NCBI RefSeq assembly: GCF_000622245.1
Contig: NZ_KK211416.1
Location: 230,296 to 294,295, forward strand
Direction: 5' to 3'
DNA from: Fusobacterium perfoetens ATCC 29250
Lineage (GTDB): Bacteria; Fusobacteriota; Fusobacteriia; Fusobacteriales; Fusobacteriaceae
Length of the DNA: 64,000 nucleotides
A program made the position numbers and the translations under genes. The notes below the pieces were generated by a model, which saw nothing but the letters and a program-made list of their open reading frames with translations, searched no databases and was not told where the DNA came from. This document shows, piece by piece, positions 12,443 through 53,064 of this stretch; the first letter of the stretch is position 1; every line of letters begins with the position of its first letter.

Positions 12443-12459
12443 AATAAATATAACTAGAA

Positions 12460-12530
12460 GAGAGGTGATGCTTATGACATTGATTGTTCTTTAATTTAGA
12501 GTAAGGAACAATTTTGTCATGAGCATTTTT
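12460..12530 (+). promoter_or_regulatory. Hairpin leader: SD-like site, mini-ORF and terminator-like stem
   Basis: AGAGGTGAT, which matches the anti-SD complement, is followed by an 8-codon reading frame (12468-12494, MLMTLIVL). The 5' arm at 12468-12478 pairs with 12516-12526, an inner helix forms between ATTGTTC and 12506-12512, and a short T run follows at 12526-12530. It sits between two array genes. The arrangement is shared with 39165-39230. It could be an attenuator or an internal terminator; translation of the mini-ORF is not shown. Confidence 0.5.
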
Positions 12531-12545
12531 ATTATAGGAGGAATT

Positions 12546-13244
12546 ATGAAAAATATAAAATTTTTTCCTAATTACAAAGATGTTTTTATAGATGAAAAAT
12601 TAAAATATTATTTTAAACCTATTTGTACAATAGGGGATTATCATTTTTTAACAGTTGATGGAATCTTTTGCATAAAGTCCTATAAATTTTCTGAAAATTA
12701 TTATTTTGGGTTTAAATTAAAAGATGGTAAGTATGAGTTTTTAGGAAATATAGATTGTTTTGGAAAAAATGATGTGGAAAGACTTTATGAAATTTTAGAA
12801 AGAGATTTTGAAGAAAATAAAAAATATTATCTTGATAAAAAAATAAAAATAGTAAATTATGTAGAAAATATTTTAAATAAAATAGAGGGAATAATTTTTA
12901 AAGAGGAACAAGATTTAGAATATTATATTGAAAGTTTTTATTGTTATAATATGGCAAAATATTATTATGAGTTAAAAGAAAAAGTTGTATCTGTTAAAGC
13001 TCTTACAGAAAATTATGGAATAACTCCTGAAGATGAATTGCTTATAGATAAAGAAGAGTTAAAAAATTGTTTGGGAGATTTCTTTGTTAATATTGAAGAT
13101 GAATTGGAATTGACACCAGCACCTACTGAGGATATGTGTGTAATGGGAATGGAGATTATACCATTTACAATGTGGGGAGAAATAGTTGGACTTTTATATG
13201 ATGAAAAAGAAGATATTATATATTTAAGAGAACAACATTCATAA
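12546..13244 (+). CDS. Hypothetical protein
   Basis: 232 residues, no family recognised. The start is placed at ATG 12546 because TAGGAGG ends 5 bases upstream; an in-frame ATG at 12519 lies inside the preceding hairpin stem. The N-terminal half is beta-rich (GDYHFLTVDGIFCIKSYKF, FGFKLKDGKYEFLG); the end (MEIIPFTMWGEIVGLLYDEK) looks like a substrate-free globular fold. No membrane segment. It is the first gene after the hairpin leader, so that leader may control it and the genes behind it. Confidence 0.65.
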   Translation: MKNIKFFPNYKDVFIDEKLKYYFKPICTIGDYHFLTVDGIFCIKSYKFSENYYFGFKLKDGKYEFLGNIDCFGKNDVERLYEILERDFEENKKYYLDKKIKIVNYVENILNKIEGIIFKEEQDLEYYIESFYCYNMAKYYYELKEKVVSVKALTENYGITPEDELLIDKEELKNCLGDFFVNIEDELELTPAPTEDMCVMGMEIIPFTMWGEIVGLLYDEKEDIIYLREQHS

Positions 13245-36386: not shown

Positions 36387-39032
36387 ATGTCACTGGTAAC
36401 TAAAGAATGGGCTAAAGAATTTGAAGAAGCAGAATATCTTGATGAAATAATAAAAGGATTAGAAGCCTTACAAAAAGAGAATAATTATACAGATGAAGAG
36501 ATGGATAATGATTTAGATGTTGCCCTTTGGAGAGCTTATGTTTATAACAATATGGATATGTATGAATATTATGAACTTTCAGAAAAAACTCTTGCTAAAG
36601 TGAAAGAAGAAGGTGTAAAAAGTGGAGTTTGGTGTTATAGATATTCTTGTGCATTAGTTTACCTTAGAAGATTTGATGAAGCTTTAGAATATAGTAGATT
36701 AGGGACTAAGATAGAGCCTAATTATCCTTGGGGTTGGTTACAACTTGGAAGACTATGTTATAAATTTAATCTTTTAGATGAAGCTTTTAGAGCTATAGAT
36801 AAAGGATTGGAGCTTGTACCAAATGATTATGAATTTTTAACATTAAAAGATGATATAGAAAATGATAGAGGATATGCTTATGCAAACTCTCACTATATAA
36901 ATGAAGAAGCAGATAAAAACCTAGAAGAAAGATTAATAAATATTGATGATGAAAATTTATATAATCAATTTTTAAATAAAAGTGATTTAGAGAAAAAGTT
37001 AGATATGTTACATAAGGATAATCAACATAAAGAAATTATCAATATAATTACCTCTCTTCCAAAAGAAGAATTAACTTATGATATTCTTGGAAAACTTGCA
37101 AGAGCATATAATAATAATGATGAATATGAAAAAGGAATGGAGATTTTACTTTCATTAAAAGATGAGGGAGAAAATACATCTCTTTGGAATTTTCGTATAG
37201 GATATTCTTGTTATTATTCTGGAAAACTTGAAGAAGCTCAAAAATATTTTGAAAGATGTTTAGAGCTAAATCCTGATGAACCAGATGGAGATACTCTTTT
37301 AAGATATACTTATTCTGATTTAGGAAATAAAAAAATAGAAGAGGGAAAAAACGAAGAAGCTATAGAGTATTTTAAAAAAATATTATCTATTGCAAAAGAT
37401 GATGAAGGAATTATCTATGGAGAATCTGAACTAGCTTGGGCATATGACTATATGAAAGAATATGAAAAAGCCTATGAACATTTACAAAAAGTAGTAGAGT
37501 TAGGAAGAGATGATATTTGGTTACACTCTGAATTAGGATATTGTTTATCAGGATTAAATAGATTTGAAGAAGCTGCTGAAGAATATAAGAAAGCTATAGA
37601 GCAAGGAAGAGAAGATAGTTGGATATATGGAAGATTGGGATTAGCTTATAGAGAATTAGAAAAATATGACGAAGCTATGGAAAGTTACCAAAAAGGTTTA
37701 GAAATAGATTCGGAAGATATTTACATTACTTCTGAAATAGCTTGGATATATGATAATGTAAAAAATGATATTGAAAAAGGGTTAGAATATCTTAATAAAG
37801 CTAAAGAACTAGGAAGAGATGATATTTGGATAAATTCAGAATTTGGTTGGGTGTATAATCATATTAGAGAAAATGAAAAAGCTTTATTATATATAGAAAA
37901 AGCTATGGAATTAGGAAGAAATGATGAATGGATTTATTTTGAAAAAGGTTATGCTCTTGCTAGAATAAATAAAATAGAGGAAGGAATAGAGTGTTATAAA
38001 AAAGCTAAAGAATTGGGAAAAAATGATGTAGGAGTCAATGCTGAAATTGGATATTGGCTAAATGCTTTAGGAAAAAATCAAGAAGCTCTTGAGTATTTAG
38101 AGATAGCCAAAGAATTATTAGGAAAAGATGATTCATGGATAGATTCAGAAATAGGTTTTTCTTTAAATAGGCTAGATAGATATGAAGAAGCTGTTTTATA
38201 TTTACAAAAAGCTAAATCTTTAGGAAGAGAAGATGAGTGGATATTTACTGAAATAGGTTTCTCATTAAAGAAATTAAAAAAATATGAAGAAGCTTTAGAA
38301 AATTATTTAAAAGTAGAAGAATTAGGAAGAAATGATGATTGGATAAATGTAGAGATAGCTGAATGTCTTGGAGAATTAGGAAATATAGAAGAAGCCATTA
38401 TAAGATTAAAAAAAGTACTTACATTTGAAAATTGTGATAAAATATTGATAAATTCTCAAATAGGATATTTATATGGAAAACTAAATAAATCTAAAGAAGC
38501 TTTAAAATATCTATTTGAAGCTGAAAAACTTGGAAGAAAAGATATTTGGTTGTATTCAGAAATAGGTTGGAATTTATCAGATGATTCTACAAAATATAAT
38601 GAAGCTTTTGAGTATCTTAATAAGGCAATAGAATTAGGAAGAGATGATAACTGGATTTTTGGACAAATAGGATTTGTTTCATCAAAACTTAATAAGAAAA
38701 AAGAAGCACAAAAATATTTTGAAAAAGCTTTATTTATAAATCCAGATGATACTTGGGTTGCATATCATTTAGGTGTGGTTTATAGAAAAGGTGGAGAAGT
38801 TCAAAAAGCTATAGAAGTTTTAGAAAATAGTTTAGAGAACACATTATTTAAAGGTTGGGTAGAATTAGAACTTGCTATTTGCTATGCTTTAATAGAAGAT
38901 AGAGAAAAAGCTCAAAAATATTTAGAGATTGCTGAATCATTTATAGGAGGAGAAAAAGAAAATTCTTCTGATGTAAAAAAAGATTTCGATATGGTAAAAC
39001 AATTATTACAACCACTAAATTTATTATCATAA
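36387..39032 (+). CDS. Giant TPR-repeat protein (paralogue)
   Basis: 881 residues with the same plan as the gene at 33563: an N-terminal block opening NNYTDEEMDNDLDVALWRAY, an acidic linker, then a long array of DDxW-type TPR units (LGRDDIWLHSELGYCLSGLN, LGREDEWIFTEIGFSLKKLK) and a C-terminal WVELELAICYALIEDREKAQ. Clearly a tandem duplication. AAGGGAGG precedes the ATG. It ends with its own terminator. Confidence 0.88.
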   Translation: MSLVTKEWAKEFEEAEYLDEIIKGLEALQKENNYTDEEMDNDLDVALWRAYVYNNMDMYEYYELSEKTLAKVKEEGVKSGVWCYRYSCALVYLRRFDEALEYSRLGTKIEPNYPWGWLQLGRLCYKFNLLDEAFRAIDKGLELVPNDYEFLTLKDDIENDRGYAYANSHYINEEADKNLEERLINIDDENLYNQFLNKSDLEKKLDMLHKDNQHKEIINIITSLPKEELTYDILGKLARAYNNNDEYEKGMEILLSLKDEGENTSLWNFRIGYSCYYSGKLEEAQKYFERCLELNPDEPDGDTLLRYTYSDLGNKKIEEGKNEEAIEYFKKILSIAKDDEGIIYGESELAWAYDYMKEYEKAYEHLQKVVELGRDDIWLHSELGYCLSGLNRFEEAAEEYKKAIEQGREDSWIYGRLGLAYRELEKYDEAMESYQKGLEIDSEDIYITSEIAWIYDNVKNDIEKGLEYLNKAKELGRDDIWINSEFGWVYNHIRENEKALLYIEKAMELGRNDEWIYFEKGYALARINKIEEGIECYKKAKELGKNDVGVNAEIGYWLNALGKNQEALEYLEIAKELLGKDDSWIDSEIGFSLNRLDRYEEAVLYLQKAKSLGREDEWIFTEIGFSLKKLKKYEEALENYLKVEELGRNDDWINVEIAECLGELGNIEEAIIRLKKVLTFENCDKILINSQIGYLYGKLNKSKEALKYLFEAEKLGRKDIWLYSEIGWNLSDDSTKYNEAFEYLNKAIELGRDDNWIFGQIGFVSSKLNKKKEAQKYFEKALFINPDDTWVAYHLGVVYRKGGEVQKAIEVLENSLENTLFKGWVELELAICYALIEDREKAQKYLEIAESFIGGEKENSSDVKKDFDMVKQLLQPLNLLS

Positions 39033-39041
39033 TTTAATATG

Positions 39042-39081
39042 AAAAGAGTTGATAGAAAACAGAACTTATCAACTCTTTTTT
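39042..39081 (+). terminator. Rho-independent terminator after the TPR gene
   Basis: AAAAGAGTTGAT (39042-39053) pairs perfectly with ATCAACTCTTTT (39068-39079), followed by further T. It closes the second TPR gene. Confidence 0.85.
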
Positions 39082-39125: not shown

Positions 39126-39134
39126 TGATATAAT
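39126..39134 (+). promoter_or_regulatory. Extended -10 promoter ahead of the hairpin leader
   Basis: TGATATAAT (39126-39134) is an extended -10 element (TGnTATAAT); no good -35 is needed or seen. Transcription would start near 39141 and run into the leader at 39165-39230. Confidence 0.55.
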
Positions 39135-39164
39135 ACTCAACAGAAAAACATATTTTTACAATGC

Positions 39165-39230
39165 TAAGAGAGGTGATGCCCAAAGTAAAATTATTTTAAA
39201 AAGAATAATTTTATTATGGGTATTTTTTTT
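39165..39230 (+). promoter_or_regulatory. Hairpin leader: SD-like site, mini-ORF and terminator-like stem
   Basis: AGAGAGGTGATGC is followed by a 7-codon frame (39176-39199, MPKVKLF). The arm 39176-39195 pairs with 39204-39223 (17 Watson-Crick pairs, two G-U, one mismatch), followed by T8 at 39223-39230. It lies downstream of a promoter and upstream of a gene, so it could act as an attenuator or give a short RNA. Same design and opening sequence as 12460-12530. Confidence 0.55.
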
Positions 39231-39260
39231 ATTAAAAAATATTTAATTATGGAGGAGAAT

Positions 39261-40622
39261 ATGGAAAATCAAAAAAGTATTGTACTAGATTATTTAGAAA
39301 GTGGTTTAAAGAAAAAGAATGAGATAATGTTTAATTTAAAAAATATGGAGAAATTTAATTTTTCTAAAAATAAAATTTATATCTTTATTTTTCTGCATAT
39401 TGTTACTATATTAGGATTTTATATAATATTTTATATAATTAGTGAACCTGTTTTTTATTATAAAAATTTTATGGAATATATATTAAGCCCTGTATTGTCT
39501 GTAATTAATATTATAGCAATTATATATATGATTGCACTTATTATAACATTAAAACAAAGAGTAATTAAAATATATTTTGATAACTCATATATAAAAATAA
39601 AATTATTTAAAAAAGTATATTTTGATGATATTGCAACAATTAGAGTTTCTCAAATAAAAAATAAAGTAGAGATAGGGATAATAAAGTATAATGGAGAAAA
39701 CATCACTTTAGATACAGAAATAAAAAATCCTAACTCTATTCAAAAAATTACAAAAGAAGATGAAAATTTTGAAAAATTTTTAGTAATATTAAAAGAAACT
39801 TTTAAAGAAAAGCTTATAGTGGAGGAATATCAGAGAGAAGCTACTAAAAAATCTATTTTAAAAATTATCGGAAAAGTTATAGTTGTATATATTATAATAA
39901 ATTTACTTTCATCTCTAACTAGTAAAATGATGACAAATTATACAAGAGGAAAAGATTTTTCGAGAAATGGTGTTGAGATTGAAACTTATGATGGTGGATA
40001 TGCAGAAATTCCTTATAAATACGGACAAAGAAATGGAATAGCAAAATATTATACAAGTGATAAAAGACTTGAAAAAGAGGTTGAATATAAAAAAGGAGAA
40101 AGAGTATTTGAAATTGAATATGATAAAAATGGAAAACTTTATATGGAAACAAAATATAAAAATGATAAAATAGAACATCATCAAAGTTACTATCCAAATG
40201 GAAATATAGATATGGAATTTATACATGAAGATAATTATTGTAAAGAGAAATATTATTCAGAAGATGAAGTTCTTGTTAAAGAGGAAAATTATAAAGATGA
40301 GAAACCTCATGGAAAAAGAACTGTTTATTATCCAAATGGAAAAACTTTTATAGAACTAGAATATAATATGGGAAAAGTAGTTTGGCCTATTAAGGTTTAT
40401 GATAAAGATGGAAAATTAAAATTAGAAGAAGTAGCAAGAAGTTCAGATAATTTTATTGAAAGAAAAATATATAATAATGATGGAAAACTTAAAGATACAC
40501 AAATTATTAAAAAAGAAGATTTAGAAGTTTGGGAAATATATTATAATAAAATTCGTGCTCTTAACTACTTTACACAAAAAGGAGTTATGGAAAAGGAAAT
40601 TGAACTTTTAGAAAAAATATAG
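39261..40622 (+). CDS. Membrane-anchored YwqK/MORN-variant protein
   Basis: 453 residues from ATG 39261; the ATG at 39216 is in the leader hairpin and GGAGGAG precedes 39261. Membrane helices at about 38-58, 77-97 and a third near 200-215 surround a PH-like segment (KIYFDNSYIKIKLFKKVYFD). The C-terminal half has YwqK repeats (YYPNGNIDMEF, VYYPNGKTFIELEY, VYDKDGKLKLEE). Localisation of the repeat part is probably outside. First of a five-gene cluster. Confidence 0.75.
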   Translation: MENQKSIVLDYLESGLKKKNEIMFNLKNMEKFNFSKNKIYIFIFLHIVTILGFYIIFYIISEPVFYYKNFMEYILSPVLSVINIIAIIYMIALIITLKQRVIKIYFDNSYIKIKLFKKVYFDDIATIRVSQIKNKVEIGIIKYNGENITLDTEIKNPNSIQKITKEDENFEKFLVILKETFKEKLIVEEYQREATKKSILKIIGKVIVVYIIINLLSSLTSKMMTNYTRGKDFSRNGVEIETYDGGYAEIPYKYGQRNGIAKYYTSDKRLEKEVEYKKGERVFEIEYDKNGKLYMETKYKNDKIEHHQSYYPNGNIDMEFIHEDNYCKEKYYSEDEVLVKEENYKDEKPHGKRTVYYPNGKTFIELEYNMGKVVWPIKVYDKDGKLKLEEVARSSDNFIERKIYNNDGKLKDTQIIKKEDLEVWEIYYNKIRALNYFTQKGVMEKEIELLEKI

Positions 40623-40635
40623 ATAAGGTGATTGT

Positions 40636-42174
40636 ATGAAAAAAATAATACTTGGATTTTTAATTCTCTCTTCTTTAGCTTTAGCAGATAAACACCCTGA
40701 TAAAAGAGCTGACTTGTATCTTAAAAATGGAAAATATTATTCTCCAGACATTAATGATGTTTTTACAGGGACTCTAATTTATGCTACAAAACCAGAAAAT
40801 ATAGATTATCTTGAGATAATTTATAGAGATGGATTAATTTCAGAGGAAAAAGAGCTTTATGAAAGTGGTGCTATAAAAAAATTAACAAAATATGATGAAG
40901 AGGAAGATGCCTATTTAGAAGAAAAATATTATGAGGATGGAACTTTATCTCAAAGAAAATTAATAAAAGATGGACAAGAAAGAATAGTTTTTATTAATGA
41001 TAACAATATTCCTAATGATAGAAATTATTTTTCTTTTGATGGAAGATTAGATAAAAAATTAGAAGTGAATGGCAATGTCCGAATAAGATATAGAAAAGAA
41101 GATAATTTTGTAAATGATGCTGACCTTTATTCTAAATTTTATAATGATATTAATATAAAAGAGGAAAAAACAGGAAATTTAGAAAATTTTTCTAGAAAAT
41201 ATGAATATGGACTTTTAGTTAATGAAAGTTATAGTAAAGTCAATGAGAAAGAAAAAATCATAAAACAAATAAATTTTGAAGATAATATTTTGACTGTAAC
41301 AGAAGATAATAAAGAAACAAAATATTATTTGAATGGTAATAAAAAATATGAAGATATTACCTTCAAAGATAAAAATAATATTTTACATAATGAAACAAGA
41401 TATTTTGATGAAAGTGAAAAAATAATTTCTGAAAAAATATATTTGAATAATGATTTAAAGAAAGAGTATAAAGATAAAGATTATGAAAATTATAGGGAAA
41501 GATTAAATAAAAATCTTCCTTATACTATAAAGTATCCAGATGGAAAAATAGCTTATGAAAAATATCTTACTAAAGATAATAAAACAATAGAAAAATATTT
41601 TTCAAAAAATGGAACTTTAACTTTTTCAGGAGAATATTATCCTAATATCTATAAGAAAAGTATAAAAAAATTAATAAGTGAATATGATGATGGACTTGAA
41701 GCAAAAGTTGAGTTACCTAAAAATATAAAAAGATATACAGTTGAGGGAAAACTTATATATGAATCTAAGTTTGAAGAAAATGAAAAATTTACTAAATTTC
41801 ATAAAATAAGTTATCATAAAAATGGAAAAATTTATTATGACGAATTAGAAACAATAGATAATACAACAGATATAATGGTTAGAGAATTAAAAAGATATGA
41901 TGAAAAAGGAAATTTAGAATACAGTCTAAAATTAGACAATAAAATAAAAATCGAAAGTGCATATAGAGATAATAAAATTCAATATAAATACGAATTAAAA
42001 AAAGAAGATGGAGACCTAATAGAAGAATATAGTATTTACTATAAGAATGGAAAGAAAAGATATTCAAGTGAATATCATACAAATTATAGAACAGGAAAAG
42101 GATTTAGTTATATAAGAACTTATGATTTAGTTGGAAAAATGAAAAAAGAATCTAAGAGAGAATATCAATATTAG
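40636..42174 (+). CDS. Secreted YwqK/MORN-variant protein
   Basis: 512 residues. A signal peptide (KKIILGFLILSSLALA) precedes a long mature part with MORN-variant units (YESGAIKKLTKY, YYEDGTLSQRKLI, YYLNGNKKYEDI, SYHKNGKIYYDELET, YYKNGKKRYSSEY). AAGGTGATT precedes the ATG. Large for the family. Likely periplasmic or outer-membrane associated. Confidence 0.78.
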   Translation: MKKIILGFLILSSLALADKHPDKRADLYLKNGKYYSPDINDVFTGTLIYATKPENIDYLEIIYRDGLISEEKELYESGAIKKLTKYDEEEDAYLEEKYYEDGTLSQRKLIKDGQERIVFINDNNIPNDRNYFSFDGRLDKKLEVNGNVRIRYRKEDNFVNDADLYSKFYNDINIKEEKTGNLENFSRKYEYGLLVNESYSKVNEKEKIIKQINFEDNILTVTEDNKETKYYLNGNKKYEDITFKDKNNILHNETRYFDESEKIISEKIYLNNDLKKEYKDKDYENYRERLNKNLPYTIKYPDGKIAYEKYLTKDNKTIEKYFSKNGTLTFSGEYYPNIYKKSIKKLISEYDDGLEAKVELPKNIKRYTVEGKLIYESKFEENEKFTKFHKISYHKNGKIYYDELETIDNTTDIMVRELKRYDEKGNLEYSLKLDNKIKIESAYRDNKIQYKYELKKEDGDLIEEYSIYYKNGKKRYSSEYHTNYRTGKGFSYIRTYDLVGKMKKESKREYQY

Positions 42175-42186
42175 GAGAAATTATCT

Positions 42187-43317
42187 ATGAAAGAAAAAAA
42201 TAATATTAAATTTAAAATAATAGTATTTTTATTGATTGCTTTAGGAATAGGAAATGAATTTTATCCCTATAAAAAAGTTATACAAGACTATCGAGAATAT
42301 AAAAAGAGAATAGCTCCATATACTGCAGATAGAGAGGTATTTTATCCTGACGGAGTTTTAAAATATAAAAAAGAGGGAAAAAAAGAGGAGTATTATCATA
42401 GAAATGGTGCTTTAAGAAGGGTAGAAGAAAATTCTAAAGGTGATACTAGATATGATATTGGAGGAAATATTATAGAAAGATTTGCCCAAGAAGAGAGTAA
42501 AGTAGAAAATGGTGTAGATAAAATATACTCTGTTAATGGGAATATAGTAGCAGAATCTAATTATAAAAATGGAAAATTAGATGGAAGTAAAAAAATATAT
42601 TTCATTGACTCAAAAGATATTTTTGCAGAAGAAAATTATAGAGATGGAATGAAAGTAGGGGAACAAAAATATTATTTTAAAAATGGAGATATAGAAGTTT
42701 ATGAGAAATATGATGAGAATGGAAAATTAAAAATTAAAAATGAATTTTTCTTTTCAGGAGAACCAAAATCTTCTTATGATTTCACAGAAAAAAATAGAAG
42801 AGAAAGTATAGAGTATAATGAAGATACTAAAAAAATAAAAGAGAAAGAGATAATTTTATACTCTGATAATGAAGAAATATTAGAAGAAATTAAAGAACAC
42901 TATAACGAAAATGGAGTTAAAAAATATACAACAAGAGAAGTAAAAAAATCTAATTTAGAAGAAACAAATATTTATTATGAAAATGGAAATCTTCAATATA
43001 CTTATTATGAATTATTTGGTAAAAGAATGCCTGTTGGAAAAATATATTATAAAAATGGAAATCTTGATACTAATAATTATTATGATGAAACTAATAAAAA
43101 ACTTATATCAGAAAAATATTTTGAGAATGGGAAACTTGAATCTAAAACTATTCATAAAAATAAAGAGATGATTAGTGATATAGAATATTATATAGAATAT
43201 AGAAATAATGGAAAGAAATTTTATGAGGTAAAAAAAGTAGGGGATAAGAAGATAGAAAAGTTTTATGGAAAAACAGAAAAATTATTATATGAAAATGTGA
43301 TAGAAGGTGATAAATAA
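42187..43317 (+). CDS. Membrane-anchored YwqK/MORN-variant protein
   Basis: 376 residues. An N-terminal anchor (FKIIVFLLIALGIGNEFY) is followed by about nine YwqK units (VFYPDGVLKYKKEG, EYYHRNGALRRVEE, IYSVNGNIVAESNYKNGKLD, YFKNGDIEVYEKY, YYENGNLQYTYY, YYKNGNLDTNNYY, YFENGKLESKTI). TAA overlaps the next ATG by one base, so translation is coupled to the small membrane protein that follows. Confidence 0.78.
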   Translation: MKEKNNIKFKIIVFLLIALGIGNEFYPYKKVIQDYREYKKRIAPYTADREVFYPDGVLKYKKEGKKEEYYHRNGALRRVEENSKGDTRYDIGGNIIERFAQEESKVENGVDKIYSVNGNIVAESNYKNGKLDGSKKIYFIDSKDIFAEENYRDGMKVGEQKYYFKNGDIEVYEKYDENGKLKIKNEFFFSGEPKSSYDFTEKNRRESIEYNEDTKKIKEKEIILYSDNEEILEEIKEHYNENGVKKYTTREVKKSNLEETNIYYENGNLQYTYYELFGKRMPVGKIYYKNGNLDTNNYYDETNKKLISEKYFENGKLESKTIHKNKEMISDIEYYIEYRNNGKKFYEVKKVGDKKIEKFYGKTEKLLYENVIEGDK

Positions 43318-43766
43318 TGGAAAATCTATATGATAAACTTTGGGAAAATACAAAAACTTGGAAATTTGACCCCTTTGTATTTATAGTCTGTTTATTTACC
43401 TTAAAAAATTATCTTATATCAATTCCACTTAACCTTAGTATACTTATTTTTTATTGTATGTTAAGTGAAAAATATACTATTAAACATTCAAAAAAGTTTT
43501 TTTTATCTTATTTATTATGGGGAATAGTATTTTTAATTCTGATTATTATAATAACTGTTCCTGTAATATTCTTTTTAGGATTTGATGATGCTGGAAGTAT
43601 AAGCTCTGAAACAAAAACTTTTATAATGTCTGGCTCTCTTCCTATGATATTTAGTAGTATAAAAATTTTATTTTCAGTAATTTTATCATATAAATCTCAA
43701 AAATGTAAAAGATTGGCATATGAAGAATATGAGGAATCTAAAAAGGGAGAGGAGGAAAATTTGTGA
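43317..43766 (+). CDS. Small membrane protein
   Basis: 149 residues with three or four membrane helices (about 19-33, 37-50, 64-88, 110-125) and a charged cytoplasmic tail (YEEYEESKKGEEEN). It overlaps its neighbours by 1 base upstream and 4 bases downstream (GTGA), so it is coupled to both YwqK genes and probably works with them. No family recognised. Confidence 0.68.
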   Translation: MENLYDKLWENTKTWKFDPFVFIVCLFTLKNYLISIPLNLSILIFYCMLSEKYTIKHSKKFFLSYLLWGIVFLILIIIITVPVIFFLGFDDAGSISSETKTFIMSGSLPMIFSSIKILFSVILSYKSQKCKRLAYEEYEESKKGEEENL

Positions 43767-45106
43767 AAAAAATAATTGCTTTAGGAAGTTTAATTTTAAC
43801 TTTATGTAGTTGCAGCTTTTTAGAGCCAAAAACAGAAGTGGGAGCTTATGGAATGGAAGCAGCAGCTTTAGCTCTTTCTCCAATAATTTATCCAATTGTC
43901 AAAGTAAAAGAGGAATTTAAGTTCCAAGTGGAACAATCTCAAGAGGAAAAAGAGAGAAAGCAAGGCTTAACAACTGTACCTGGAAAATCAAAATCACAAG
44001 GATATTTTAGTAGTGATTGGTTTATGGGAAATTTTTATAGGAATGAATATGTTATATATGATATTTTTTCTGACAAAAGTGGATTTATTACAGAAAGAAA
44101 AGGGTATCTTCCAAGTGGACAATTAATAGTCCATGAAAAATTTAGAAGAAGAAAAAAAGTTTATGAAAAAGTATATTATCCAAATGGAAAACAATATTAT
44201 TTAGTAGACCATGATAATTCTCAATATATATCTTATGATATAAATGGAAATTTAACAAAAAATTTAACAGGAAAAGAAAAGTTAACTAGAGAATACAATG
44301 GAGAAACTTTAATTAAAGAAAGTTACTCTAAGGGAGAAATGGGATATTGGAAAAATTATTATGATACAGGAGCTCCTAAAGGAGTAGAAGTAACAAATAT
44401 GATTCTTGAAGACCAAAAATTATTTTCAGAAGCTGAAAAAACATTAAAAGATTGGAATGAAGTTTATGAAGAGGTAAGAAAATCTGAAAAAACAAAATAT
44501 AATGGAAAATATAGAATTTACTCACCAAACGGTGATATTTATGCAGATTTTAATTTCAAAAATGGATATGCTATTGGAGAGCAAAAACAATATTATTGGA
44601 ATAGTAAAAAATTATTTTCAAAATTTATATATGTAAATGGAAATTTAGAAAAAATTATATACTATTTTAAAAATGGAAAGATTAAAGAAATCCATGATAA
44701 TAACTCATATAAAAGCTATAATTTAGCTGGACAATTAATAGGAGAAGGGAATAGTAAAGGAAGAAAAGAATATTATAATGGAAAGTTAATAGTATTTAGA
44801 CCAAAAACTTCTGATTGGGCTGATGATGAAACTAAATATTATTTAGATGGAAAACTAAAAGCTCAAATGCAATTTGTGGATAATGATTCTAGAATAAGAG
44901 TATTAACTTATTATCATTATAATGGAAAGAGAAAAGAAGAATACATAAGTACTATTTATCCTGACCAATTATCTATATACAGAGAATATTATATGAATGG
45001 AAAAATGAAATATGAAGAGATAAAAAATTCCAATATATATAGAAAAATAATAAGATTTTATGATATAAATGGAAATCTTTTAAAAGAAAAAAATCAGAAA
45101 TTTTAA
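43763..45106 (+). CDS. YwqK/MORN-variant lipoprotein
   Basis: 447 residues, GTG start at 43763 after GGAGAGGAGG. The N-terminus KKIIALGSLILTLCSCSF is a lipoprotein signal with Cys15 or Cys17 as the anchor. Repeats: YLPSGQLIVHEKF, YYPNGKQYYLVDH, IYSPNGDIYADFNFKNGYAI, YYLDGKLKAQMQF, YYMNGKMKYEEI. An early AYGMEAAALALSPIIYPIVK segment is hydrophobic. Last gene of the cluster. Confidence 0.8.
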   Translation: MKKIIALGSLILTLCSCSFLEPKTEVGAYGMEAAALALSPIIYPIVKVKEEFKFQVEQSQEEKERKQGLTTVPGKSKSQGYFSSDWFMGNFYRNEYVIYDIFSDKSGFITERKGYLPSGQLIVHEKFRRRKKVYEKVYYPNGKQYYLVDHDNSQYISYDINGNLTKNLTGKEKLTREYNGETLIKESYSKGEMGYWKNYYDTGAPKGVEVTNMILEDQKLFSEAEKTLKDWNEVYEEVRKSEKTKYNGKYRIYSPNGDIYADFNFKNGYAIGEQKQYYWNSKKLFSKFIYVNGNLEKIIYYFKNGKIKEIHDNNSYKSYNLAGQLIGEGNSKGRKEYYNGKLIVFRPKTSDWADDETKYYLDGKLKAQMQFVDNDSRIRVLTYYHYNGKRKEEYISTIYPDQLSIYREYYMNGKMKYEEIKNSNIYRKIIRFYDINGNLLKEKNQKF

Positions 45107-51185: not shown

Positions 51186-52769
51186 TTAGATATGTTTTTT
51201 TCTTGTTATTAATAAAATAACTGCAAGAGCTATCATTCCAAAAGGAAGAGCTAAGAATAAACTTCTAGTATATCCTACTATAATATAAGAAACAAAAGAT
51301 ACAGCAGCTACTGTTAAAGCATAAGGTAATTGAGTATAAACATGATTTACATGATTACTTTGAGCTCCAGCAGAAGCCATTATAGTAGTATCAGAAATTG
51401 GAGAACAATGGTCTCCACAAACAGCCCCAGCCATACAAGAAGAAATTGCTATTATCATCATTTGATGGTCACCTTCAAAAACAGCAACAACTATCGGAAT
51501 TAAAATTCCAAATGTTCCCCAAGAAGTTCCTGTAGCAAAAGCAAGTCCACAACCAACTAAGAATATAATTGCTGGTAACATATTCATTAAAGAACTTGCT
51601 GAAGTCTCCATAAAGTGAGCTACATAAGGAGCTGCTCCTAAACTATCAGTCATAGCTTTTAAAGTCCAAGCAAAAGTAAGAATTATAATTGCTGGAACCA
51701 TTGCTTTAAATCCTTCTGGAATACATCCCATACATTGATGGAAAGTTAAAACTCTTTTTAATGAATAAATAATAATTGTAAATATCATTGCAAAAATACT
51801 TCCTAAAGAAAGACCTAGAGATGCATCACTACTAGAAAATGCCTCAACAAATGTAGCTCCACTGAAAAATCCTCCAGTATAAATCATTCCAATTACACAG
51901 CAAATAATTAATAAAGCAATAGGAATTACTAAATCTAAAACAGAACCTTTTTTATTTTCTTGAACTTCTTCTGTAACAAATGAACGGTCAGCAGTTGTAA
52001 ATAAATCTCCATTTAAAGCATTTTCTTCATGAATTCTCATTGGTCCATAATCTATTTTAGAAATAACTAAAGTTACTAACATAAATATTGTAAGTAAAGC
52101 ATAAAAGTTATAAGGAATCGCTTGAATAAATATTGAAAATCCGTCTTCACCAGGAACAAATCCTGTAACTGCTGCTGCCCATGAAGAAATAGGAGCTATA
52201 ATACATACAGGAGCTGCTGTAGAGTCTATAATATAAGCAAGTTTTGCACGAGATACATTATATTTATCAGTAACAGGACGCATAACACTTCCAACAGTTA
52301 AACAATTAAAATAGTCATCAACAAATATTAAACATCCTAGTAATATTGTAGCAAGTTGAGCTGATACACGAGATTTTATTTTTTTACTAGCCCATAATCC
52401 AAAAGCTAATGAACCACCAGCTGAATTCATAAGACAAACCATAGTTCCTAGTACAACTAAGAAAATTAAAATTCCTACATTATAACTACTAGAAAGAACT
52501 GAAATAAAACCATCTTGTAAAATATGAGTAGCCGTTCTTTCAAAAGTAAAACCAGAATAAAATAAACCTCCAACAGTAATTCCTATAAATAGTGAACTAT
52601 AAACTTCTTTAGTTATAAGTGCAAGAACTATCGCCACTATAGGTGGAACTAAAGACCAAAATGTAGAATAAAGTGCTGGTTGATATCCTTCTTCTCCAGC
52701 AAAACTAAAACTAGATAACAGTAAAAACATTGAGCATATAAGAATGCTTCTAATAAAACTTTTTTTCAT
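51186..52769 (-). CDS. NhaC-family transporter under lysine riboswitch (LysW type)
   Basis: 527 residues from ATG 52769, preceded by GGAGGG; an ATG four codons earlier lies in front of the site. An N-terminal signal-like helix (FIRSILICSMFLLLSSFSFA) and about 12 membrane helices with NhaC-superfamily motifs (CLIFVDDYFNCLTVGSVMRP, SSWAAAVTGFVPGEDGF, GDHCSPISDTTIMASAG). A lysine riboswitch and terminator upstream make lysine uptake the likely role; NhaC proteins controlled this way have been proposed as lysine transporters (LysW). Substrate not tested here. Confidence 0.88.
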   Translation of the reverse strand: MKKSFIRSILICSMFLLLSSFSFAGEEGYQPALYSTFWSLVPPIVAIVLALITKEVYSSLFIGITVGGLFYSGFTFERTATHILQDGFISVLSSSYNVGILIFLVVLGTMVCLMNSAGGSLAFGLWASKKIKSRVSAQLATILLGCLIFVDDYFNCLTVGSVMRPVTDKYNVSRAKLAYIIDSTAAPVCIIAPISSWAAAVTGFVPGEDGFSIFIQAIPYNFYALLTIFMLVTLVISKIDYGPMRIHEENALNGDLFTTADRSFVTEEVQENKKGSVLDLVIPIALLIICCVIGMIYTGGFFSGATFVEAFSSSDASLGLSLGSIFAMIFTIIIYSLKRVLTFHQCMGCIPEGFKAMVPAIIILTFAWTLKAMTDSLGAAPYVAHFMETSASSLMNMLPAIIFLVGCGLAFATGTSWGTFGILIPIVVAVFEGDHQMMIIAISSCMAGAVCGDHCSPISDTTIMASAGAQSNHVNHVYTQLPYALTVAAVSFVSYIIVGYTRSLFLALPFGMIALAVILLITRKKHI

Positions 52770-52807
52770 AAAACCCTCCATATTTATAAAAATTTAATAT
52801 TAACAAA

Positions 52808-52884: not shown

Positions 52885-53064
52885 ATATACTTTGATAGCT
52901 CTCCACAAATTTGTGACAGTCTATTATATATTTTATAATAGCCCAAGAATTATTTGATGATTATAATCCTTTCGGCAATTCTCCCTTTTATCTAAACAAC
53001 AGTCCATCAACTTTTTACATTTAGATTACTCTTGAAAATTGCAACCTCTATCCTCTAGCTTATT
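52885..53064 (-). promoter_or_regulatory. Lysine riboswitch (L box)
   Basis: Read leftward, the conserved blocks of the L box occur in order: AGCTAGAGG, GATAGAGGTTGCAA, CAAGAGTA, GGGAGAATTGCCGAAAGG, CTTGGGCTAT with its partner ATAATAG, ACTGTCAC and GTGGAGAGCTATC closing the basal stem. Boundaries are approximate. It binds lysine and controls the NhaC-family gene through the terminator at 52808-52838. Confidence 0.92.

What the first reader, a model, noticed from the sequence alone, without database searches (positions are those of the whole stretch)
39165..39230. Leader element B: same design, promoter-proximal, before the YwqK cluster
An extended -10 promoter (39126-39134) drives a short leader with AGAGAGGTGATGC, a 7-codon mini-ORF (MPKVKLF) and a 20-base stem followed by T8. 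Two independent occurrences with the same order argue for a family of attenuators or small RNAs rather than chance terminators. Element B lies ahead of antitoxin-like genes, element A ahead of immunity-like genes.
Basis: partly seen in the sequence, partly recalled or inferred. Interest (0 to 1): 0.65.

Follow-up and report, generated by a model that had tools for sequence, protein, structure and literature searches.

The report
Ribosome-gated leader before immunity gene arrays
A short RNA switch, a strong ribosome-binding site placed directly at the foot of a transcription-stop hairpin, sits in front of blocks of toxin-immunity-like genes in these bacteria and probably lets the genes be read only when a ribosome lands on it.

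Summary
Element B (39164-39232) is an extended Shine-Dalgarno (SD) motif fused to a long hairpin with T8, 38 nt before a MORN2/YwqK gene. It is one of four copies in this genome and one of a closed family of 24 in 9 of 98 held genomes of the phylum, all in two genera. Rfam has no model for it. The helix covaries on a structure-blind alignment. Among 58 hairpin-plus-T-tract sites in 84 kb, the four own elements have the four strongest SD sequences at the foot. The U-tract lies 18-42 nt from the next start codon, so these genes are most simply read through the hairpin. The 7-codon ORF is real, but its peptide and length are not conserved. Of the 24, 23 lead immunity-array, MORN2-cluster or DUF2207 genes. 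Best reading: a ribosome-binding attenuator working like the one before E. coli ampC, where a ribosome on the SD stops the terminator from folding. Termination and regulation are inferred, not shown. The main rival is a terminator opened by a small RNA or protein.

The parts
39043..39081 (+). ordinary terminator of the upstream TPR gene (36387-39032); probably ends upstream transcription before promoter B
   Evidence: hairpin AAGAGTTGATAG...CTTATCAACTCTT + T-tract in the hairpin scan, no SD at its foot (-1.8)
39126..39134 (+). extended -10 promoter element TGATATAAT
   Evidence: sequence; identical in sister genome G002; no start site mapped
39167..39175 (+). SD-like motif AGAGAGGTG, complementary to the 16S 3' end, at the foot of the hairpin
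   Evidence: duplex energy -13.9; among the top 4 of 58 hairpin sites
39176..39199 (+). mini-ORF MPKVKLF*; AUG overlaps the SD complement; peptide not conserved in the family
39175..39224 (+). long hairpin of element B (about 22 pairs)
   Evidence: fold z -5.8; covariation over 24 members
39223..39230 (+). T8 tract directly after the stem (intrinsic-terminator signature)
   Evidence: T tract present in 24 of 24 members (G006_1 read by hand)
39261..40622 (+). first gene behind B: MORN_2 (YwqK-type) protein, 453 aa, 38 nt after the U-tract
   Evidence: Pfam MORN_2 E 4e-12; distance
40636..45106 (+). rest of the MORN2 cluster behind B (512, 376, 149 and 447 aa); MORN_2 below cut-off in the 376- and 447-aa proteins, none in the 512-aa one, the 149-aa one not scanned
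12459..12467 (+). element A: SD-like motif AGAGAGGTG
   Evidence: duplex energy -15.9
12467..12530 (+). element A: hairpin and T5 tract
   Evidence: z -7.3; 25 pairs
12468..12494 (+). element A: mini-ORF MLMTLIVL*
12546..13244 (+). first gene behind A (232 aa, no Pfam hit), 20 nt after the U-tract, followed by a DUF4241 gene

Best explanation
Element B is one copy of a cis-acting leader attenuator gated by ribosome binding. RNA polymerase starts at the promoter at 39126-39134 (B, C and D types) or arrives from the preceding gene (A type), and transcribes an unusually strong Shine-Dalgarno sequence followed directly by a long hairpin and a U-tract. If no ribosome is bound, the hairpin folds and transcription ends at the U-tract. 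If a 30S or 70S complex sits on the SD, with the start codon(s) inside the 5' arm, the lower arm is covered, the hairpin cannot close next to the U-tract, and polymerase reads into the immunity/MORN2 genes. Shown here: conservation, covariation, SD complementarity, U-tract, spacing and gene association. Inferred: termination, ribosome binding, and the direction of control (more initiating or arrested ribosomes give more expression).
For: (1) 24 members in 9 of 98 genomes, cleanly separated from other sites. (2) Helix conserved by pairing: 95.2% of cells paired, 10 pairs with double changes against 4.7 in shuffles, all slid controls far lower (alignment made without structure). (3) The only conserved unpaired part is the SD: columns before it are unconserved, which leaves no conserved aptamer or anti-terminator arm. 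(4) The SD is kept as an SD although its letters drift (AAGGAGATG, AAAGGGAGG, AAGAGGGTG, AAAGAGGTG): 22 of 22 correctly anchored members score -10.8 to -18.4 against a median of -10.0 for 65 window ORF starts; B scores -13.9; the 16S-type end CACCTCC is present in 5 of 5 complete relatives searched. (5) The four own copies rank 1-4 of 58 hairpin sites for SD at the foot. (6) Blocking -15..+14 around the first AUG drops the fold from -22..-37 to -2..-13.5 kcal/mol in 24 of 24. (7) U-tract to start codon is 18-42 nt, leaving hardly any room for another leadered promoter. (8) Five members lie 25-26 nt behind a stop codon, where a terminating ribosome can rebind.
Against: No transcript data. The stem is AT-rich, and termination efficiency is not known. 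The first AUG overlaps the SD duplex (poor spacing), and the well-spaced second AUG is missing in 4 of 24, including B itself, so initiation on B may be weak. Lower-stem letters are more conserved than pairing alone needs (UGC invariant), which a protein or small-RNA site would also explain. In 7 of 24, B among them, five or more of the 8 bases before the U-tract are still paired, with other partners and weakly, when the footprint is blocked, so blocking is not complete in every model. The -10 motifs found upstream of 15 of 24 were scored with a loose pattern and no background control.
Confidence: 0.47

Rival explanations
1. The hairpin is an intrinsic terminator whose read-through is controlled in trans by a small RNA or an RNA-binding protein that recognises the conserved GAGGUGAUGC foot or the lower stem, as proposed for FoxJ in F. 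nucleatum or as for GlpP leaders.
For: Lower-stem letters UGC are invariant in 24 of 24. In F. nucleatum ATCC 23726 the small RNA FoxJ raises genes behind intra-operonic terminators, among them a YwqK-family antitoxin gene (PMC11005410, section read). GlpP-type leaders of similar build occur in the same family and were weak hits of model R1.
Against: FoxJ targets carry a guanine stretch; only 1 of 24 elements has a G run of 4, the rest 2-3. The own genome has no second site complementary to the 11-base core. The foot drifts between several SD forms, which fits 16S rRNA better than one fixed partner.
Confidence: 0.2
2. Ribosome-stalling leader peptide: the mini-ORF is translated, and a drug or amino-acid shortage stalls the ribosome on defined codons, opening the terminator.
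For: 23 of 24 have an in-frame stop inside the hairpin, 8 codons being the commonest length. A stalled ribosome on the 5' arm would open the hairpin. Such uORFs control an E. coli toxin-antitoxin operon (toiL, PMC12121999, passages).
Against: No conserved peptide: lengths 4, 7, 8, 12, 15 and 17 codons; one member has no stop; the +2 frame looks similar, and the T-rich arm explains the hydrophobic codons.
Confidence: 0.12
3. A partial terminator or RNA-stabilising or processing hairpin with a standby SD that keeps ribosomes or 30S subunits on the mRNA; no regulation.
For: Stabilising SD sequences are known in Firmicutes (recalled, no call). The U-tract-to-gene distance would allow constant partial read-through.
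Against: A constant function would not need U-tract, hairpin and SD kept together in 24 of 24 copies; other hairpin sites in 84 kb lack an SD this strong.
Confidence: 0.13
4. A mobile or recombination hairpin that marks the borders of exchangeable gene cassettes; transcription effects are secondary.
For: Copies of different types share only the element, not the flanks. A gene is inserted just 5' of A in G002, and a 6.1-kb difference between own genome and G002 ends at the U-tract of B.
Against: All 24 copies face the downstream gene, none are scattered elsewhere; orthologous copies stay in place; the B difference is best read as a deletion in the own genome, because the 3' end of the lost third gene remains.
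Confidence: 0.08

Closest known systems
E. coli ampC (beta-lactamase) attenuator
   Same: A terminator lies between promoter and gene, and its read-through is reported to depend on growth rate (PMC6045580 and PMC3660660, passages). That the sensing part is a ribosome-binding site at the hairpin is recalled from Jaurin et al. 1981, cited in those papers but not read here.
   Different: [quoted passage not shown] Here it is a repeated family with an SD fused to the hairpin foot, both promoter-proximal and inside operons, before immunity/MORN2 genes.
FoxJ-controlled intra-operonic terminators of F. nucleatum
   Same: Intrinsic terminators ahead of downstream operon genes, one of them a YwqK-family gene; read-through regulated (PMC11005410, sections read).
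   Different: Those sites are recognised through a guanine stretch by a C-rich small RNA; the present elements lack it and carry an SD instead.
toiL / vmlR-type uORF attenuators
   Same: Short ORF near a regulatory structure; output is a toxin-antitoxin or resistance gene (toiL: PMC12121999 passages; vmlR: PMC9226507 search listing only).
   Different: They depend on stalling within a defined ORF; here the ORF is not conserved.
GlpP-dependent glp leaders
   Same: Leader hairpin plus U-tract before glpF and dhaK in related genomes, weak hits of model R1.
   Different: No hit with the refined model R2; different genes, presumably controlled by an antiterminator protein.

Membership tests
Intrinsic (Rho-independent) attenuator | stable hairpin directly followed by a U-tract | tested here: met
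   24 of 24 members (G006_1 tract read)
Intrinsic (Rho-independent) attenuator | lies between promoter and gene, so that read-through is needed | tested here: inconclusive
   U-tract to start codon 18-42 nt speaks for it; -10-like motif upstream in 15 of 24 by a loose pattern without background; no start sites mapped
Intrinsic (Rho-independent) attenuator | premature RNA 3' ends and regulated read-through | not testable with these tools
   needs Term-seq or in vitro transcription
ampC-type ribosome-binding attenuator | SD placed so that a bound ribosome prevents the terminator | tested here: met
   SD at the foot; in silico block of the arm, incomplete in 7 of 24
ampC-type ribosome-binding attenuator | growth-rate-dependent read-through | not testable with these tools
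   no expression data
Leader-peptide (stalling) attenuator | conserved coding sequence or codon run in the leader ORF | tested here: not met
   lengths 4-17 codons, no shared peptide, one without stop
FoxJ-type small-RNA-controlled terminator | guanine stretch in the terminator | tested here: not met
   G run of 4 or more in 1 of 24; used as a proxy for the paper's stretch
Rfam families (release 15) | match at or above a gathering score | tested here: not met
   window: only the lysine riboswitch; 5 loci with members at E<=1: only microRNA models far below their gathering scores
Polyimmunity locus (genes behind the elements) | many immunity-type families in one array | tested here: met
   Imm17, SUKH-1, DUF1963, DUF4299, DUF4241, DUF6630, DUF1266; Imm17 reported in heterogeneous polyimmunity loci, fusobacteria included (PMC3482391 passage)

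The most novel reading that the evidence does not exclude
The elements form a translation-damage sensor shared by the polyimmunity and MORN2 arrays. When an incoming tRNA- or rRNA-cutting toxin (or a ribosome drug) arrests ribosomes at or near initiation, they stay on the leader SD, the terminator cannot fold, and whole blocks of immunity genes are switched on together: a ribosome-read alarm for contact-dependent attack.
Probability: 0.13. Interest if true: 0.82.

Novelty: new variant of a known kind. Interest (0 to 1): 0.52.

Why it matters
How bacteria decide when to express long arrays of immunity genes is largely unknown. Here one compact element is reused in front of several such blocks and of the expanded MORN2 genes of this group (called a Fusobacterium-specific expansion of unknown function in PMC12940168, passage). 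If it works as proposed, one ribosome-sensing switch would tie immunity expression to the state of translation. A single two-colour reporter with an SD mutation tests it. It would also give a simple, portable attenuator for AT-rich bacteria.

Tried and rejected
Small-RNA gene reading: not favoured, because every member lies 18-42 nt before a gene start in the same direction. Type I toxin mini-gene: rejected, no conserved peptide. Classic riboswitch or T-box: no Rfam hit and no conserved sequence upstream of the SD. MITE or phage origin: the 19-base pattern of the 3' arm found one chance hit in a coding region of a viral contig; no blastn match of element B in plasmids or of element A in phages. 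The gapped pattern found nothing in genome contigs; the allowed second scan with the 19-base arm gave 10 places, of which 9 have no matching hairpin and one (L104) an unrelated perfect hairpin. These collections may leave out the near relatives, so absence there says little. Cassette swap at B: first suspected from the abrupt loss of identity, then read as a 6.1-kb deletion in the own genome.

Rows dropped: model R1 gave 36 matches at E<=0.1. I kept 24. I dropped G005:C19 (no SD form, no gene behind it), one antisense hit (G005:C12:28304+), four glp/dhaK-type leaders (G031 twice, G032, G034; Pfam run for two of the four, the others by likeness) and six others at E>=6e-4: G018, G049, G017, G036 and G025 judged by eye, and G002:C4 not examined. 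Model R2 was built from 23 of the 24 (the near-identical C of G002 left out) and recovered all 24 in 98 genomes, plus G005:C19, five antisense hits and three weak places (G030:C215, G062, G010), not followed.

Faults in my scripts: one search anchored B and B_G002 on an upstream ATG, so their two SD values are void (B re-measured, B_G002 not). One search mislocated the U-tract of G006_1 (53 nt; by hand about 38). Gene starts are heuristic. The notes hold interim wording that this report replaces.

Papers, what I saw: PMC11005410 outline with abstract and sections 5, 10, 11 and 18; passages only of PMC12121999, PMC3482391, PMC6045580, PMC3660660, PMC7067209, PMC12940168; PMC9226507 listing only. 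That the element is not in print rests on the searches and on Rfam; supplementary tables could not be opened, so its 3' ends may already stand in Table S1B of PMC11005410. The ribosome detail of the ampC attenuator and the stabilising-SD idea are recalled.

Full report
What was checked. The window lies in a 2.1-Mb draft genome (G000:C24:230296-294295). Element B is present as described: extended -10 at 39126-39134, AGAGAGGTGATGC at 39167-39179, the ORF MPKVKLF* at 39176-39199, a hairpin at 39175-39224 and T8 at 39223-39230. The fold is far more stable than 200 shuffles (z -5.8; A: z -7.3). AGAGGTGATGC occurs three times in the own genome, all on one strand within 42 kb. A covariance model adds a fourth copy at C24:214727.

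The family. From six sequences I built model R1, collected members and inspected them one by one. A gapped two-arm pattern hits 16 places in 7 of 98 genomes of the phylum, with zero hits of the reversed control. A refined model R2 separates 24 members (E <= 3.4e-9) from everything else (next 1.2e-6, an antisense hit) in 9 of 98 genomes, all in two genera: 5 of the 7 genomes of the window's genus and 4 of the 12 of the second genus. The own genome has 4; sister genome G002 has 4 at corresponding places. Two genomes of the own genus (G001, G004) have none. No member reaches an Rfam family at the gathering score in the window, and five loci with members gave only microRNA models far below their gathering scores.

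Anatomy. In a structure-blind MAFFT alignment of 24, conservation begins abruptly at the SD; columns further upstream are not conserved. The helix is conserved by pairing: 95.2% of 498 cells pair, 10 of 21 pairs show changes on both sides (shuffles 4.7 +/- 1.2, 0 of 500 as high), and slid controls give 45-58% paired. The conserved single-stranded part reads AAAGAGGUGAU, complementary to the 16S 3' end, whose CACCUCC was confirmed in 5 of 5 complete relatives (the own draft shows none). Its letters drift while SD strength stays: 22 of 22 correctly anchored members score -10.8 to -18.4, against a median of -10.0 for 65 ORF starts in the window. Among 58 hairpins followed by T-tracts in the window plus 20 kb upstream, both strands, the four elements have the four strongest SDs at their foot: -18.4, -15.9, -13.9 and -12.2; next -10.8, in a coding region.

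The mini-ORF. The first AUG (GUG in 4 of 24) overlaps the SD complement. A second AUG, 8 nt behind GAGG and better placed, exists in 20 of 24 but not in B, B_G002, G029_2 or G035_3. ORF lengths are 4, 7, 8, 12, 15 and 17 codons, and one member has no stop within the hairpin; the +2 frame behaves much the same. So there is no sign of a conserved peptide, which speaks against codon-specific stalling and leaves ribosome binding as the simpler conserved feature.

Context. The first genes behind the 24 elements are Imm17 (7), the SMI1/DUF6630 'MERYNLSAE' gene (4), the 232-242-aa gene before a DUF4241-bearing gene (3), a gene with a sub-threshold DUF3592 match followed by MORN_2 (5), MORN_2 (2), DUF2207 (2) and DUF6847 (1) (the other members of each type were assigned by sequence likeness, not by separate Pfam runs). 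The large array around A and C holds SUKH-1, DUF1963, DUF4299, DUF1266 and DUF5713 genes. Imm17 is reported in heterogeneous polyimmunity loci including those of fusobacteria (PMC3482391, passage). In the two genera, 7 of 10 Imm17 genes lie directly behind an element; those of G024, G032 and G034 do not. The association is therefore strong but not obligatory.

Why an attenuator. The U-tract is 18-42 nt from the next start codon in all members. A second promoter with a usable RBS hardly fits there, so the genes are most simply transcribed through the hairpin. Five members (A, G024, G006_2, G005_3, G035_4) lie 25-26 nt after a stop codon; 15 of 24 have a -10-like motif 36-68 nt before the first AUG (loose pattern, no background control). 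Blocking -15..+14 around the first AUG lowers the fold from -22..-37 to -2..-13.5 kcal/mol in 24 of 24, with weak residual pairing of five or more of the 8 bases before the U-tract in 7 of 24. The design therefore works like a terminator that an initiating ribosome can hold open. The closest known case is the attenuator of E. coli ampC, described as growth-rate-dependent anti-termination (PMC6045580 passage; PMC3660660); its ribosome mechanism is recalled.

Rivals. In F. nucleatum ATCC 23726 the small RNA FoxJ raises genes behind intra-operonic terminators, one of them a YwqK-family gene (PMC11005410). Those sites carry a guanine stretch that the present elements lack, and no other site complementary to the 11-base core exists in the own genome, but a short-seed small RNA or a protein is not excluded. 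A stalling leader peptide, a stabilising hairpin and a mobile hairpin are weaker for the reasons in the rival list.

Evolution at B. Own genome and G002 are 97% identical (321 of 330 columns) up to the U-tract of B, then differ. G002 has three more MORN2-cluster genes (about 6.1 kb) between the element and the gene that now follows B in the own genome; the last bases of the third gene remain in the own genome, so this is best read as a deletion that kept the leader in front of the next gene.

Verdict. A real, previously unlisted leader family in front of immunity/MORN2 arrays; mechanism inferred at 0.47. The decisive experiments are simple.

Noticed in passing
window 39229-39261 against L089:7988-14069: Sister genome G002 carries about 6.1 kb (three MORN2-cluster genes of 644, 737 and 592 aa) directly behind element B that the own genome lacks; the 3' end of the third gene remains at about 39236-39247, so the own genome probably lost them.
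   Followed up: partly
L088:12998-13522 (G002), 5' of its element A: An isochorismatase-family gene is inserted between the DUF5713 gene and element A in G002; absent in the own genome and in G024.
   Followed up: partly
L050, L051, L053, L062 (G031, G032, G034, G031): Leader hairpins with U-tracts before glpF (behind a GlpP-type antiterminator gene, shown for L050) and before dhaK; similar in build, not members of the family.
   Followed up: partly
window 52888-53058 (-): Lysine riboswitch (Rfam RF00168, 100.5 bits) ahead of the 531-aa transporter-like gene at 51186-52781.
   Followed up: no
L059 (G005:C12:28288-28372, minus strand): The mini-ORF of this member has no stop and runs in frame through the hairpin into the Imm17 gene, a possible natural fusion.
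   Followed up: no
L043, L044, L041, L059, about 20-60 nt before the SD: Several promoter-proximal members share an upstream block like TAGTATACT ... AAAGCTTTATACYCTAAC, perhaps a common promoter with more than a -10.
   Followed up: no
L092:577-653 (-) (G005:C19): A hairpin clearly akin to the family but without an SD form and without a gene behind it, next to a GNAT gene that resembles an array gene of the window; perhaps a decayed copy.
   Followed up: partly
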